Assembly: GCA_016926955.1 (NCBI GenBank)
Contig: JAFGNN010000091.1
Coordinates: 1-53,081 of the forward strand
Direction of reading: 5' to 3'
DNA length: 53,081 nt
Source of the DNA: Spirochaetales bacterium
GTDB lineage: Bacteria; Spirochaetota; Spirochaetia; Treponematales; UBA12059
Numbering within the stretch: the stretch's first letter is position 1; each line of letters starts with the position of its first letter. Shown one piece after another: positions 671 through 53,081 of the stretch. A model generated the notes under the pieces. That model ran no database searches and had not been told where the DNA came from. It worked only from the letters and a program-made list of their open reading frames with translations. A program made the translations under genes and the position numbers.

Positions 671-855
671 GGCTTCGCCTCCAGCCCGCTTCGACCTTCC
701 CGGAAGGCCCGCCTTCCCGAAGGCTCCGCCTCCGGTCCCCGCGCGCCCGCGTTCCGCGGGCGCCGCCCCGAGCCCTGCCCCCCCGAGCGGGCTCACGCGG
801 CGATCGCGGCGACGAAGCCTGGGGAAGGCTTCGTCGATCCGCTCCCGGCGCCGTG
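671..855. repeat. Palindrome-rich spacer with P-family palindrome (copy P1, 810-836)
   Basis: The spacer between the solute-binding gene and dus contains nested inverted repeats such as gcgggctt/agcccgc and cttcccggaagg. Within it, arms CGACGAAGCC (810-819) and GGCTTCGTCG (827-836) flank a 7-nt centre. Near-identical palindromes occur at 1805-1831 and 18609-18629. No gene was recognised here. Confidence 0.6.
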
Positions 856-1933: not shown

Positions 1934-2072
1934 TCACGGGAAAGCGGCGTGAAAGGGCTCACCACGACGTAGCGCCTCGCTGAGCCCGGCAGGACGGCGG
2001 GTGACGCGGGGCAACGCGGCCCCGAACGTCAGTGAGTGGGTTGCGTTGTCCCGCGTCAGGCCCCGCCCTGCC
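1934..2072 (+). repeat. H-family structured repeat, copy C1 (hairpin core 1996-2067)
   Basis: The element begins gcggcgtg, has a small stem gggctca/tgagccc, then GGACGGCGGGTG and a long hairpin whose arms gacgcggggcaacgc and gcgttgtcccgcgtc pair around the loop gaacgtcagtgag. It closes with caggccccgcc. The same order of blocks is found at 26401, 27827 and, on the other strand, 25982 and 45932. Confidence 0.65.
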
Positions 2073-2151
2073 ATGCCCCAATGACGCCCCACGCCGCTTC
2101 GACTGTTTCACCCCGTCTGCCCGCCAACGCGCGGGACGGTCGGTACCCGCG

Positions 2152-19959: not shown

Positions 19960-20125
19960 GCGGTGTCGCCGGAGTACCGGCGTCCGGATTCCGCGCACTG
20001 CTGGATATGGCATGAGGGCAGTACGGCGACAAGCCGGGCCTCGAACCGCGCGGAGCGGGGCCTGCCGGCGAAACAACACGTCCCGCGCGCTCCCAATACC
20101 TCGCTTGGGGACGATAGGGGAAATC

Positions 20126-20174
20126 GCCGAAGCCGTTCCGCGGCTTCGGCGCCGCGACCGCGGAACGCGGTCGC
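20126..20174. repeat. Two adjacent hairpins, one P-like
   Basis: GCCGAAGCC (20126-20134) pairs with GGCTTCGGC (20142-20150), a variant of the P palindrome. GCGACCGCG (20154-20162) pairs with CGCGGTCGC (20166-20174) around gaa. All arms are perfect 9-mers. Confidence 0.55.
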
Positions 20175-25946: not shown

Positions 25947-26107
25947 GAAAAACGGCGGAGGGCGCTATCTGAACCTGGCAGGGCGGGTCCTGTCGCGCGA
26001 TAACACACCCGCGCGCTTGGGGCGCGCGCGGGCGCGTTTTCGCGCACCACCCGCCGTCCTGCACGGTTCGATCGGGCGATATCCCGAGTTTCCCCAGCAC
26101 GCCGCTA
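25947..26107 (-). repeat. H-family structured repeat, copy R1 (core 25982-26055)
   Basis: Read on the minus strand it carries gcggcgtg, GGACGGCGGGTGG, a long GC-rich hairpin and ACAGGACCCGCC, the block order of the family. The nearest relative is R2 at 45895-46053. A C-G pair here is T-A there, next to the GCGCGC core stem. Confidence 0.7.
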
Positions 26108-26171
26108 TCCAGAATCCGCCCCCACCCACCGCGCGGCGGGGCATCACCTTACAGATTACCGGAGCGGGCGC

Positions 26172-26246
26172 CTCGGTTCGAGCCCTGTCCCCACGGAGAA
26201 GCGCGGCGTGAAAGCGCAAACCCGGCGGACGCTTGAGCGGTGCCGG
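26172..26246 (+). repeat. 75-bp direct repeat, left copy
   Basis: Matches 27746-27820 without gaps and with few changes, including ggttcgag, a T motif and accc-ggcggacgcttgagcggtgccgg (split here for length). The two copies bracket the exonuclease-family gene. Confidence 0.7.
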
Positions 26247-26400
26247 CGTCGCGGAGGCGCGACCACCCGAGGGCGGTAGCGGCTTCGTCGATCTCCCCCA
26301 ACGCCCCAGCGGGCGCCCCCGCTCGAGGCCGGCACTAACCGGAATGCGCGGCGTGCAAGTGTCCCGAACCCGGTGGGCCGATCCGCGGAAACTGCGGCGC

Positions 26401-26476
26401 GGCGGGTGACGGCGAAAAACGAACCCTTGAGCGTCAGCGAAAGGGCTCGTTCTTTCGCCGTCAGGCCCCGCGCGGG
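26401..26476 (+). repeat. H-family hairpin, copy C2
   Basis: GGCGGGTGACGG, then arms gcgaaaaacgaaccctt and agggctcgttctttcgc around loop gagcgtcagcgaa, closing with ccgtcaggccccgc. The stem differs from C1 and C3 but stays paired. Confidence 0.65.
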
Positions 26477-26498
26477 AGTGTCCATGGCCCGGTTTCGC

Positions 26499-26568
26499 GC
26501 CGCGTTCCCTCGCTTCCCGTCGAACCATCCCCGAGGGTCAGCCCTTGAGCAGGCGCGCGAGCGACCTG
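26499..26568 (+). repeat. Duplicate of the DUF188 gene 3' end, left copy
   Basis: Seventy bp that match 27924-27993 with three mismatches. In the right copy the segment spans the stop and last ten codons of the DUF188 gene; here it is detached from any gene. Confidence 0.8.
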
Positions 26569-27717: not shown

Positions 27718-27745
27718 CCGCCCGCTTGAGCGCCTGGGCGAGCGC

Positions 27746-27820
27746 CACGGTTCGAGCTCTGTCCCCACAGGAAGGCGCGGCGTGATAGCGTTAACCCGGC
27801 GGACGCTTGAGCGGTGCCGG
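27746..27820 (+). repeat. 75-bp direct repeat, right copy
   Basis: Gap-free match to 26172-26246, containing T motif GAGCTCTGTCCCC (27754-27766). Confidence 0.7.
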
Positions 27821-27826
27821 CTTTAC

Positions 27827-27898
27827 GGGGGGTGGCGAGAAAAAGCGCGCCCCCGAACGTCAGTGAGCGGGGTGTGCTTTTCCTCGACAGGACCCCCG
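27827..27898 (+). repeat. H-family hairpin, copy C3
   Basis: ggggtggcgagaaaaagc and gcttttcctcgacaggac pair around gcgccccc/cggggtgt and the loop gaacgtcagtgag. The loop is identical to C1 while the stem sequence differs. Confidence 0.65.
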
Positions 27899-36246: not shown

Positions 36247-39200
36247 ATGACAACGGGCCAGAAAGCATCGTTCAGCCTCCTGCTCGGCGTGATACTCTTC
36301 GCCGGGTTCGCCGTGCTCGGGTATTCCGGGCTCTTCGGCGAGATCGAGCTGCGCTTCTACAACCCGCGCATCGCCCGCGCCGCCCTGGCCCGTACGGAAA
36401 GCCTGTCCGCCGGCATGGAACGGTGGCGCTCTTCCCTCGGGGAACGTTTCGCCGCCGTCGTCGCCATGGACGCCGTGAAGCGCTCCTGGCTTCCGAACCA
36501 GGCGGCCGCCGACATCGCCGAGCGCGACCGGAGCTTCGGCCTGCTCGCGGAAGCGACCCCGGGCTTTCTCGGCGTGCGCATCCTGGATTCCGACGGCCGC
36601 CGACTCCATTACTCGGGCTTCGAGGGGGATGTCCTCAGGCGCGAGTCCTTCCGTACCGTGTACAGGGCTTGGGGCGACGAGACGGACCGGCCTTATGGGG
36701 ACTACGTGCCGCCGGATGGCCGCGACTCGACCGTCCTCATAGACACGCCGATGGACGCCTTCGCCTTCAGTCACCGCTTCTCGGACGAATTCGGCGTCGA
36801 ACGTGGCGTGGCGGTCTTCTGGGTATCGCGCGGCGGCCTGGCCGGCCACCTGACCCGGGAAGGGGTCCTGTCGGTCGGCGAGGCCACGGTTTTCGCCGGT
36901 TCGGCCGGCGTGCTCGCGGGCGTGCCCGCCTTCGGCCGCGAGGAACTCCCCGCGCGCGTGGCCGCGGCATGGTCGGACGGCCTCGGAGCCGAACCCGTCC
37001 CGGTCGCCGGTTCCGAAGCTTCGGGCGACTTCGTCCTGTTCACCGCGAGCGGACCCTTCCTGCGGGCGGGCTTTCTCGCGCCGGCCGAGTGGTTCCGCCT
37101 GCCCGGCGCGATGCGCCTCGTCCTGCTCGGCGCCGTCTTCGTGACCGTCTTCCTCGTCGCCTTCCTGATCCTCAATCTCAGGCAGGATCCGCTCGTCGTC
37201 GTGGCGGACCGGGTCAAGCGCTTCCAGATAGGCCTCGTCGAGGAATACCTCGAACGGGAAGGGGAGCTCGACCTACGCCGCTGGCGCGCCGAGCTGGAGT
37301 CCCGCAGGACCGAAGCACGCGCCGCACTGCGGCGCAAGCTCGGGAAGGTGCCGAAACGACGGGAAGCCGAGGTCGACGGGCTCGTCGACAAGGGTTGGTC
37401 CGAGATCCTCGCGGTTCTCGACGCGCGGCTCGGCGGGACCGACCGCATCGACGCCCGGCGACTTGAGGAACTTCTCGGCAAAGCCCTGTCCGGCGGCAAC
37501 ATCGTCGTCGCGGCCGCTCCGGCCGCGGATGTCAGAAGCGGAGCCGCGTCGCCCGGGACACGTCCGGCGCTGGCCGCTCCGGCGGCCGGCTCCGTTGAGG
37601 CAAGCGGATCCGTGGAACCCGAAGCCCTCGAGGAGGCGGAAGAGCTCGAGGAGGCCGAAGCCCTCGATGAGGCGGAAGAGCTCGAGGAGGCCGAAGCCCT
37701 CGAGGAGGCGGAGGAGCTCGAGGAGGCCGAAGCCCTCGAGGAGGCGGAAGAGCTCGAGGAGGCGGAGGAGCTCGAGGAGGCCGAAGCCCTCGATGAGGCG
37801 GAGGAGCTCGAGGAGGCGGAGGAGCTCGAGGAGGCCGAAGCCCTCGATGAGGCGGAGGAGCTCGCGGAGGCCGAAGCCCTCGATGAGGCGGAGGAACTCG
37901 CGGAACCCGAGCCCCTCGACGAACTGGAAGAGGTCGAGGAGCTGGAGGAGCTCGAGCTCGAGGAAGCCGCGCTCGCTTCCGAGGAGTCCGTCGAGGTCGA
38001 CGAGCCGGAGGAACTCGTTTCCTTCGAGGAGAAACCCTCGCTGACCGCATGGGGCGATGTGGCTCCCGCGGACCAGCTCGAAGAGCTTCTGACCGGTCCC
38101 GTCGACGAGACAGCGGAGACCGGCTCGAGCATACGGATCTACTCGCCGATAGGCGCCCGGGGGCCGGGGGAGAGGCTCGCCGACGATACCGCGGCCCCTT
38201 CGCCTCCCGTGGCGGATGGCGCGGAGCTCGAGGAACTCGAGGCGCTCGACGAAGAGGCGGATGAGCCGAACATGTTCGATGACCGGGCTGACGAGGACGT
38301 TCCCGTCATACCGGAATCCATCGGACTCGAGCTCGTGGACGAAGCCGCCATCGAGGAGATTCTGGCCCTCGTCGAAGGTTCCGCGGGCGACTCCGGGGCG
38401 CTCGACGTCGAAGCCGCATCCCTTTCGCTCGAGGACGACCAGGCCGATACGGTCGGGACGTCGCGCGGCGTTCAAGACCTTGGGCGTCCTCCTCTCGAGG
38501 CGAGGGATGTGTCCGCCCTGACCGCCGATATGGACGAGCTCGGAGAACCTGAAGAGCTCGAGGCACTCGAAGAGCCTGAAGAGCTTGAGGAACTCGAAGA
38601 GCTCGAGGAGCTTGGCGCCTCGGAGGAAAGCCAGGAGACGGGCTTGGCATCGCCATCCGGAGCTTCGGAACGACCCGGGGCGACTTCGGCTGAACCTCGC
38701 GCACCCGGCCGTGCGGAGATCGGACCCTCCACTTCGACGGGCGGAGCGGTCGCCGGCGTCCTTTCGGATGCCGAGGTGATCGTCGACGCCACCGGCGCGG
38801 CCTACGAGGTCAGGCGCTCGGGCGAGGACGACGAGGACGGCGACGCGCTCTCCGAGGCGGAATACGAACTCTACCTTTCCTCGCTCGACTTGAGCGACCT
38901 CGAGGGATGGCGCGATGAGGCAGGTTTCTCCGCCCCGCGTCCGGCCGACGCGTTCGCCGAGCTCGAGGCCGGCGTCGCCGCCGAGGAGGCGGACGACTCC
39001 GCAATCCGGGACGGCGAGATACCGATGCTCTCGGACGAGGAGCGCGAGCGCGTCGAAGAGCTGCCCACCGCCGAGGTCCGCGAGGACGAGGCTCCGACGG
39101 ACCTTGTTCCGGTTTCCCCGTCGTTCCTCGCCTACCGTTCCCCGGAAAGCGGGTCCCCGCGCTTCCGCGTGGCGGCGGAAGGCGAGATCGAGTCCATCGG

Positions 39201-45894: not shown

Positions 45895-46053
45895 GGAAAA
45901 AACGGCGAAGGGCGTTATCGGGGCCGTGCGGGGCGGGTCCTGTCGCGCAATAACACATCCGCGCGCTAGGGGCGCGCGCGGACGCGTTTTGCGCGCCACC
46001 CGCCGTCCCGAATCGTTCCGCAAGGCGCTTCGGCGGGTTTGCCCAAGCACGCC
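45895..46053 (-). repeat. H-family structured repeat, copy R2 (core 45932-46004)
   Basis: Nearly the same as R1 at 25947-26107, on the same strand. The core hairpin has GGCGGGT/ACCCGCC ends and a GCGCGC-rich centre. It lies 135 bp from the transposase remnant. Confidence 0.7.
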
Positions 46054-52034: not shown

Positions 52035-53081
52035 ATGACGAGGAGGGAAGGGGTGCGGATCCACAAGACCGGGGCTATTGCCGCGATCGTCGCCTCGCTC
52101 TTCCTCATCTCCTGCGCTACCGCTCCCGAACCCGCCGAGCTGGGGCCGGAAACCGTTTCTGTCCCGCCCGCGGCGAAGGAAGATTCGCCGCCGTCCGAAG
52201 CGGCGGTGACCTACCTCGCGCCGGCGCCCGCGCCGGAGGCCGTCGGCGTGCCCCTCTATGAACCCGCCGCTCCCGTCGCCGCCCCCGCCTCCGCCGCCGC
52301 AGCTTCCTCGCCCGACGTCGCGCCGCCCGAGCCGAAGCCGGCGCCCGCGGTGGCCGGCACCGCCGGGGCCAAGCCCGCTCCGGCCGTCGTCGCCGCGCGC
52401 CCCGCCACCGCCGAACCCGCTACAAAGACGCCCGCGGCTCCCGCGCCGTCGGCGACACCCGCCCCGGCCCTGTCCCCGCCACCCGATCCAACGACGCCCG
52501 CGGCAGTCACGCCATCTGCCGGTACCGCCCCGGCTCTGTCCCCAGTGTCAGCCCCGATGCAGGCGATAGCCGTGACGCCCTTGGGCGCGCCTGACATCCT
52601 CGATCCTGCGGAGCTTTCCCGAGGTCCGGATCTTGAATTCGGCGTCCGCAAGGGTGATCGCTTCGAGATAAGGGTTTCTGGCTCCGGTTGGACCTACCTC
52701 GGCGAGGCCGCCGGGCAGGAAGGCATAGGATACGAGCACCGCCGCTTCCAGGAAGGGGATGCCATATTTTCCCTGACTGCCGATCGAGCGGGCGATTACC
52801 TCCTCGACTTCCGCAGGCTCGATCCATTGCTCGGCGTACCGGAATCCAAGTCCGCCCGCATCGTGGTGGCCGACGCGGCGACACCCGTCGGCGCTCCATT
52901 GAGTGGCCTCGGCACGGGTATCATGGGCAGCGTCACCGGCAGCATGGTTGCGACGCCTTCTCCGTCCCCGGCACCTGTCGCCGCGGGCTCTGTCCCCGCC
53001 GACGCTGGCGCCGCCCCTCCGGCCTCGACACCCGCCGCCACCGGCTCTGTCCCCGCCGCCCCACCGGCCTCGACACCCGCC
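52035..53081 (+). CDS. Lipoprotein with Pro/Ala-rich linkers, cut by window end
   Basis: The frame from ATG 52035 is open to the window edge (349 codons). A lipobox (VASLFLISC) anchors the mature protein. Residues about 35-175 and again the last 30 codons are Pro/Ala-rich linkers; between them lies an ordered domain (FGVRKGDRFEIRVSGSGWTYLGE, RRFQEGDAIFSLTADRAGDYLLDFRRLDP). The linkers contain T-family DNA motifs, read as ALSP or GSVP. GTG at 52053 is an alternative start. Third gene of the smc operon; function unknown. Confidence 0.75.
   Translation, partial: MTRREGVRIHKTGAIAAIVASLFLISCATAPEPAELGPETVSVPPAAKEDSPPSEAAVTYLAPAPAPEAVGVPLYEPAAPVAAPASAAAASSPDVAPPEPKPAPAVAGTAGAKPAPAVVAARPATAEPATKTPAAPAPSATPAPALSPPPDPTTPAAVTPSAGTAPALSPVSAPMQAIAVTPLGAPDILDPAELSRGPDLEFGVRKGDRFEIRVSGSGWTYLGEAAGQEGIGYEHRRFQEGDAIFSLTADRAGDYLLDFRRLDPLLGVPESKSARIVVADAATPVGAPLSGLGTGIMGSVTGSMVATPSPSPAPVAAGSVPADAGAAPPASTPAATGSVPAAPPASTPA

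What the first reader, a model, noticed from the sequence alone, without database searches (positions are those of the whole stretch)
27827..27898. Five-member hairpin family (H) with a conserved loop and variable but paired stems
Copies at 1996-2067, 26401-26476 and 27827-27898 share loop GAACGTCAGTGAG (GAGCGTCAGCGAA in one) while arm sequences differ and stay complementary. The copies at 25982 and 45932 share the outer blocks GGCGGGTGxCG and CAGGxCCCGCC. Upstream, gcggcgtg and GGACGG recur at similar distances. A loop more conserved than its stem is the mark of a recognised hairpin, such as a transposase substrate or a protein-binding RNA.
Basis: seen in the sequence. Interest (0 to 1): 0.78.

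Follow-up and report, generated by a model that had tools for sequence, protein, structure and literature searches.

The report
Cross-phylum family of mobile DNA hairpins
The five hairpins are copies of a roughly 155-base dispersed element present about 40 times in this spirochaete genome, whose basal hairpin motif also occurs in tens of copies in unrelated bacterial phyla, where it has inserted in frame into core genes, and none of the enzymes known to move such repeats explains how it spreads.

Summary
The hairpin is the core of a ~155-bp element, with outer stem GCGGCG…CGCCGC. There are five full copies in the window and about 40 in the genome. A sister species has about as many, mostly at the same positions. 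Across 85 copies, 94.8% of pair cells are standard pairs (79.0% after shuffling, at most 50.2% after sliding), with 431 cells changed on both sides (108 shuffled). The best conserved hairpin part is not the apical loop but the basal junction 5'-GGCGGGTGRC…GWCAGGMCCCGCC. At orthologous sites the whole central hairpin has often been exchanged for another, still paired, one.

The junction also defines hairpin families in Actinomycetota, Omnitrophota, Gemmatimonadota, Elusimicrobiota, Saccharibacteria and other lineages: 307 matches in 30 genomes against 5 for a reversed control, and essentially none in viral contigs. Copies sit in frame in mnmA, priA, dnaX, rpsB, rpsE and rpsP. There is no target duplication, no Rfam match, and no consistent Y1/RAYT, TnpB or reverse transcriptase.

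Best reading: a new superfamily of REP/RPE-like, structure-recognised, non-autonomous mobile palindromes whose mobiliser is unknown. A host RNA function is the main rival. Nearly all genomes are metagenome assemblies; no transcription data were available.

The parts
1940..2100 (+). full ~155-bp element, copy 1 (hairpin core 1996-2067), between a solute-binding-protein gene and rpsP (divergent)
   Evidence: CM R1 152.5 bits; gene context
25949..26109 (-). full element, copy 2 (hairpin core 25982-26055); its 3' end lies 39 bp from the 3' end of a transglycosylase gene; head-to-head with copy 3
   Evidence: CM R1 133.8 bits
26199..26310 (+). probable degenerate 5' half of an element between copies 2 and 3
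   Evidence: CM R1 21.3 bits, E 0.58; 84% identical to 27733-27831 over 26159-26257
26344..26506 (+). full element, copy 3 (hairpin core about 26401-26472)
   Evidence: CM R1 95.6 bits
27773..27931 (+). full element, copy 4 (the finding; hairpin core 27827-27898), between convergent genes; 3' end 32 bp from the stop of a DUF188 gene
   Evidence: CM R1 132.6 bits
45899..46059 (-). full element, copy 5 (hairpin core 45932-46004), downstream of a PIN-PhoH gene
   Evidence: CM R1 144.3 bits
1806..1833 (+). companion palindrome GACGAAGCC-GGGGAAC-GGCTTCGTCGAT, about 100 bp upstream of copy 1; this second repeat is usually found near the element
   Evidence: repeat family D6

Best explanation
This is a new superfamily of non-autonomous mobile palindromes of the REP/RPE type. 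The recognised part is a folded strand, most likely single-stranded DNA. It consists of a 6-bp GC stem, an asymmetric junction 5'-GGG-UG-R-C / G-W-CA-GGM-CCC-3' (a 2-bp step next to a 3-nt GGA or GGC bulge, closed by a G.A, A-T or G-C pair), then a stem whose sequence is free as long as it pairs. A trans-acting factor that reads this junction copies or inserts the hairpin into new sites without target duplication, including in frame into genes. In this spirochaete genus the hairpin sits in a larger 155-bp scaffold. The scaffolds are now largely fixed in position, while hairpins are exchanged between copies by gene conversion or replacement. Shown: structure, covariation, junction conservation, copy number, shared positions, hairpin differences at shared sites, cross-phylum occurrence, in-frame insertion, absence of the obvious enzymes. 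Inferred: mobility as DNA, single-stranded recognition, the mechanism of exchange, and the existence of a dedicated mobiliser.
For: Covariation in 85 copies. About 40 copies in this genome, 47 and 42 matches in two congeners. Shared positions between species. At 16 of 22 orthologous positions the best-matching hairpin of the sister species is at another locus, while pairing stays at 92%. Junction motif: 307 matches in 30 genomes of many lineages against 5 for the reversed control, including identical 73-nt hairpins on different contigs and in different species of Acidimicrobiia. Sharp ends and no excess of direct repeats at the ends. In-frame copies in core genes. Patchy within Spirochaetota: many copies in this genus only. 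One folding strand: U opposite G is kept in 63 of 79 sequences at one upper-stem pair, which is A.C on the other strand.
Against: No mobiliser found. No transposition event was seen; the one candidate empty site (L273) is not clean. Copies in this genus are mostly at old, shared positions, as expected also of a host function. The 3' end lies close to gene 3' ends (22 of 25 within 57 bp), which could mean function or only tolerated placement. G.U conservation fits RNA as well as DNA. All evidence comes from genome assemblies.
Confidence: 0.6

Rival explanations
1. A family of structured RNAs with a host function (protein-binding sRNA, mRNA 3'-end or antisense-blocking terminator). The structure is kept because the RNA is used, and copies are paralogous RNA genes.
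For: Strand-specific structure with conserved G.U pairs. Positions conserved between species. 3' end next to gene 3' ends, median 32 bp when the neighbour shows its 3' end. T-rich stretch after the terminal CGCCG in many copies.
Against: No bias of the upstream neighbour's orientation (21 against 19). Elsewhere the hairpin lies inside genes in both orientations and is translated. Inner stems differ completely between genomes. No Rfam family.
Confidence: 0.22
2. Classical REP elements moved by a RAYT (Y1) transposase, with the GTGG inside the junction as the guide tetranucleotide.
For: Palindromes, head-to-head pairs and GTGG next to the inner stem. The own genome has three Y1_Tnp genes.
Against: 14 of 19 genomes carrying the motif have no Y1_Tnp gene. 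Of 17 Y1 loci checked one carries an element nearby, and the orthologous copy in the window has no Y1 gene beside it. Many copies read GTGA, not GTGG.
Confidence: 0.08
3. Moved by a reverse transcriptase or by IS200/IS605 TnpB-type elements, as a non-autonomous derivative.
For: Structured, strand-specific element of a suitable size.
Against: RVT_1 in 2 of 15 carrier genomes, TnpB above its cut-off in none.
Confidence: 0.03
4. The cross-phylum likeness is convergence or mis-binned contigs, and the element is a spirochaete-genus repeat only.
For: The genomes named are almost all MAGs. The distant copies share mainly the basal motif with the spirochaete copies and were selected by that motif.
Against: Many copies per genome with genome-specific inner stems, reversed-pattern control near zero. 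Several copies lie inside chromosomal core genes. Positions next to the searched motif (GGC/GCC) are also conserved.
Confidence: 0.07

Closest known systems
Rickettsia palindromic elements (RPE) and other intragenic palindromes
   Same: Short palindromes in many copies that sit in frame inside protein genes; no known transposase.
   Different: Different sequence and structure. RPEs of R. conorii are tagged CGTC at one end (PMC3733652). Here the conserved part is an internal basal junction, and the range covers many phyla.
GTAG-tagged REPs / REPINs with RAYT transposases
   Same: Dispersed palindromes, head-to-head pairs, intergenic placement.
   Different: 75-155 bp instead of 20-40 bp; no unpaired GTAG end; RAYT absent from most carrier genomes and not next to the copies.
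CGTC-tagged REPs
   Same: No associated transposase; several phyla, some spirochaetes; head-to-head pairs (PMC3733652).
   Different: Those have 8-9 bp stems starting with AT, 4-5 nt loops and a CCA tail (PMC3733652). Here stems are about 20-25 bp with internal loops.
ERIC-like intergenic repeats (from general knowledge)
   Same: Imperfect palindrome over 100 bp, intergenic, positions shared between related species, no enzyme known.
   Different: ERIC is known from enterobacteria and relatives; not compared here by sequence.

Membership tests
GTAG-tagged REP / REPIN | 20-40 bp palindrome with an unpaired GTAG/GTGG tetranucleotide at its foot | tested here: not met
   Element 75-155 bp; GTGG or GTGA lies inside a closed stem, between outer GGCGGG/CCCGCC and the inner stem
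GTAG-tagged REP / REPIN | cognate RAYT (Y1_Tnp) gene flanked by copies | tested here: not met
   PF01797 absent from 14 of 19 carrier genomes; 1 of 17 loci has an element nearby
CGTC-tagged REP (incl. RPE) | 8-9 bp stem with AT at its base, 4-5 nt loop, CGTC end and CCA tail | tested here: not met
   Stem lengths, loops and ends differ; definition from PMC3733652
RPE-like intragenic palindromes (works like) | in-frame insertion in conserved protein genes, apparently tolerated by the protein | tested here: met
   MnmA insertion of about 26 residues against solved MnmA; PriA, DnaX, S2, S5, S16, Lhr-like helicase, MMPL, and two fusion linkers. Tolerance is inferred from intact domains, not assayed.
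Rfam structured RNA family | match at or above the curated score | tested here: not met
   No match in the window; only chance-level matches below gathering score in four element loci
MITE of a DDE transposon | terminal inverted repeats with target-site duplication | tested here: not met
   Ends are inverted repeats, but direct repeats at the ends are not above shuffled flanks
Group II intron / retron-type element | reverse transcriptase in the genome | tested here: not met
   RVT_1 in 2 of 15 carrier genomes, none in G000 or G001
Structured, transcribed RNA | a transcript from the copies | not testable with these tools
   no expression data

The most novel reading that the evidence does not exclude
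One superfamily of hairpins with a single recognition junction has spread by an undescribed, structure-reading mobilisation process through a dozen or so bacterial lineages, inserts in frame into essential genes and can join neighbouring genes into fusions.
Probability: 0.4. Interest if true: 0.82.

Novelty: new variant of a known kind. Interest (0 to 1): 0.63.

Why it matters
Two large REP superfamilies are described, and one of them still lacks a mobiliser. A third, structurally distinct one, spread over distant phyla and found inside core genes, gives a defined recognition motif with which to look for the missing machinery. It also offers a clear example of how short mobile DNA adds linkers to proteins and may fuse genes. 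Exchange of whole hairpins at fixed sites would show how arms can diverge completely and stay complementary without slow pairwise compensation.

Tried and rejected
Rfam at gathering and relaxed thresholds: nothing. RAYT link: no. Reverse transcriptase and TnpB: mostly absent. A shared protein next to distant copies: only low-complexity or ordinary gene neighbours. Viral carriage: strict pattern 0 matches; relaxed pattern 48 matches, of which one passes a simple pairing filter and even that one is doubtful. Text search for the motif strings: GACAGGACCCGCC in no paper, GGCGGGTGGCG only in 8 papers whose titles and abstracts are unrelated. Papers on in-frame palindromes in Saccharibacteria: none. 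Target-site duplication: none. Hammerhead-like core in a loop insert (CTGATGAG...CGAAA in L222): considered and dropped, because the second copy (L021) breaks the core. Clean empty site in DNA: tried at two Acidimicrobiia loci; G067 lacks the element at one, but the intergenic sequence is otherwise changed.

Full report
What is there. The hairpin at 27827-27898 is real, and so are the four others named. The loop string by itself proves nothing: 3 matches with up to one mismatch against 2.86 expected. A DNA search of the window's own genome (3.38 Mb, 94 contigs; window = contig 25) with 1930-2130 returned 43 matches, several over about 160 bases. Aligned, they show one element: GCGGCGTG - linker - GGCAGGAC - GGCGGGTGRCG [variable stem] ACGCGCCCC - GA..CG loop CAGTGAG - GGGGTGTG [variable stem] CGWCAGGMCCCGCC - CTG - linker - GATRACGCCC - CGCCG.

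Structure. RNAalifold on 21 copies gives 39 pairs, 22 with changes on both sides. A covariance model finds about 40 full copies in this genome and 47 and 42 matches in two congeners; divergent or few copies appear in other genera and families of the order. From the public record titles the congeners are uncultured 'Spirochaetes bacterium' assemblies, QR_Bin.15 and RA.bin126; this link rests on equal scores and matching positions and contig lengths. On 85 aligned copies, 94.8% of cells pair (79.0% in shuffles), 431 cells are changed on both sides (108 in shuffles) and slid versions reach at most 50.2% pairing. The alignment was fitted to the model, which favours the structure, but the gap looks far larger than that would explain; in particular, variable-stem pairs run through four standard types. 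One upper-stem pair is G.U in 63 of 79 sequences; on the other strand it would be A.C, so the given strand is the one that folds. At the junction the third base of the bulge varies with the closing pair: A-T with GGC (30) more than GGA (9 or 10), G.A almost always with GGA (19 against 2), G-C with GGC (11). Conservation is highest in the outer stem (0.95) and basal junction (0.89), lower in the apical loop (0.75) and lowest in the variable stem (0.65).

History in the genus. Flank mapping to a sister species at roughly 80-90% identity shows an element at the same place for most mappable copies; the regions fetched from the sister genome were chosen because they hold copies, so this share is biased upward. 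Alignment of the orthologous copies shows two modes: near identity (e.g. L037 against L209), or a different central hairpin between similar outer arms (window 1940 against L222; L042 against L216). Over 22 same-orientation pairs the median identity of the outer arms is 76% and 74% and of the hairpin 67.5%; in 16 of 22 the best-matching hairpin of the sister species is at another locus; pairing stays at 92%. Exchange of whole hairpins, by gene conversion or replacement, is the simplest account; loss and re-insertion at the same site is not excluded. The element's 3' end is close to a gene end: where the neighbour shows its 3' end, 22 of 25 are within 57 bp (median 32), whereas the 5' side is usually hundreds of bases from the next gene; the orientation of the 5' neighbour is even (21 against 19) (home-made gene calls). 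Head-to-head pairs recur. A second palindrome, GACGAAGCC...GGCTTCGTCGAT, is usually found near the element, mostly upstream.

Other phyla. The relaxed pattern GGGTGGC-N46-76-GACAGGMCC gives 307 matches in 30 of these genomes and 5 for the reversed pattern; as the genomes were chosen by the stricter pattern, about one match each is expected from selection alone, but several have 20 to 45. Single matches in a genome may be chance. Inner stems differ between and within genomes, while stems pair. GGC/GCC next to the searched motif is conserved, and the next two base pairs covary (75% and 71% paired against 41% and 43% expected). In Acidimicrobiia identical 73-nt hairpins lie on different contigs and in different species; ends are sharp, AGGCCGGC...GCCGGCCGG, and direct repeats at the ends of distant copies are not in excess. 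Other Spirochaetota show only isolated, non-palindromic chance matches to the pattern; many copies occur only in this genus. Viral contigs hold essentially none.

Inside genes. Many distant hairpins are open in a long frame, though in GC-rich DNA long frames alone mean little. Pfam confirms core genes: S2, S5 and S16 (C-terminal extensions), MnmA, PriA (between its 3'-DNA-binding and helicase domains), DnaX, an Lhr-like helicase, an MMPL transporter, and two apparent fusions in which the hairpin forms the linker, RNase HII to UPF0102 and a DHODB Fe-S domain to dihydroorotate dehydrogenase. For MnmA the solved relatives have about 3 residues where the Saccharibacteria protein has about 26, nearly all hairpin-encoded. 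Insertion in both orientations relative to the gene, with the reading frame kept, speaks for an element acting as DNA rather than a fixed RNA gene.

Who moves it. Y1_Tnp (RAYT family) is missing in 14 of 19 carrier genomes, and only one of 17 Y1 loci has an element nearby. Reverse transcriptase is in 2 of 15 and TnpB above its cut-off in none. Incomplete assemblies could hide a gene in one genome, hardly in most. The situation resembles the CGTC-tagged REPs, for which no transposase is known (PMC3733652), but the element fails the structural definition of that family.

Verdict. The best reading is a new superfamily of REP/RPE-like mobile palindromes. Mobility by an unknown factor is inferred from distribution, unrelated flanks and in-frame insertion, not seen directly. 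A host RNA role in the spirochaete genus remains the main rival.

Noticed in passing
window 811-838, 1806-1833, 20123-20150 (-); L206, L209-L213, L216, L222-L224: Second palindrome family GACGAAGCC-(loop GCGGAAC/GGGGAAC)-GGCTTCGTCGAT, with compensated variants (GCCGAAGCC/GGCTTCGGC), usually within 400 bp of the element, mostly on its 5' side.
   Followed up: partly
L222:7221-7447 and L021 (around the element): About 68-nt insert in or near the hairpin loop (GATGAGGTCG-stem-...CGAAAGCGGRCC...GGYCCGC), itself structured and repeated, with related pieces in other intergenic regions; looked hammerhead-like in one copy only.
   Followed up: partly
L129:5322-6404 and L100:509-2455 (-): Hairpin as the linker of two apparent gene fusions (RNase HII with UPF0102; DHODB Fe-S domain with DHO_dh), as if insertion had joined neighbouring genes.
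   Followed up: partly
window 37537-38022: 18-bp tandem repeat array inside a gene, encoding an acidic E/L/A-rich repeat.
   Followed up: no
window 52415-53073 and others: Recurring GCTCTGTCCCC-type motifs, possibly remains of another repeat family.
   Followed up: no
L126, L129, L142, L152, L281: Tandem short remnants of the element's ends (e.g. GCGACAGGACCCGCCAC repeated every ~20-25 bases) beside full copies.
   Followed up: no
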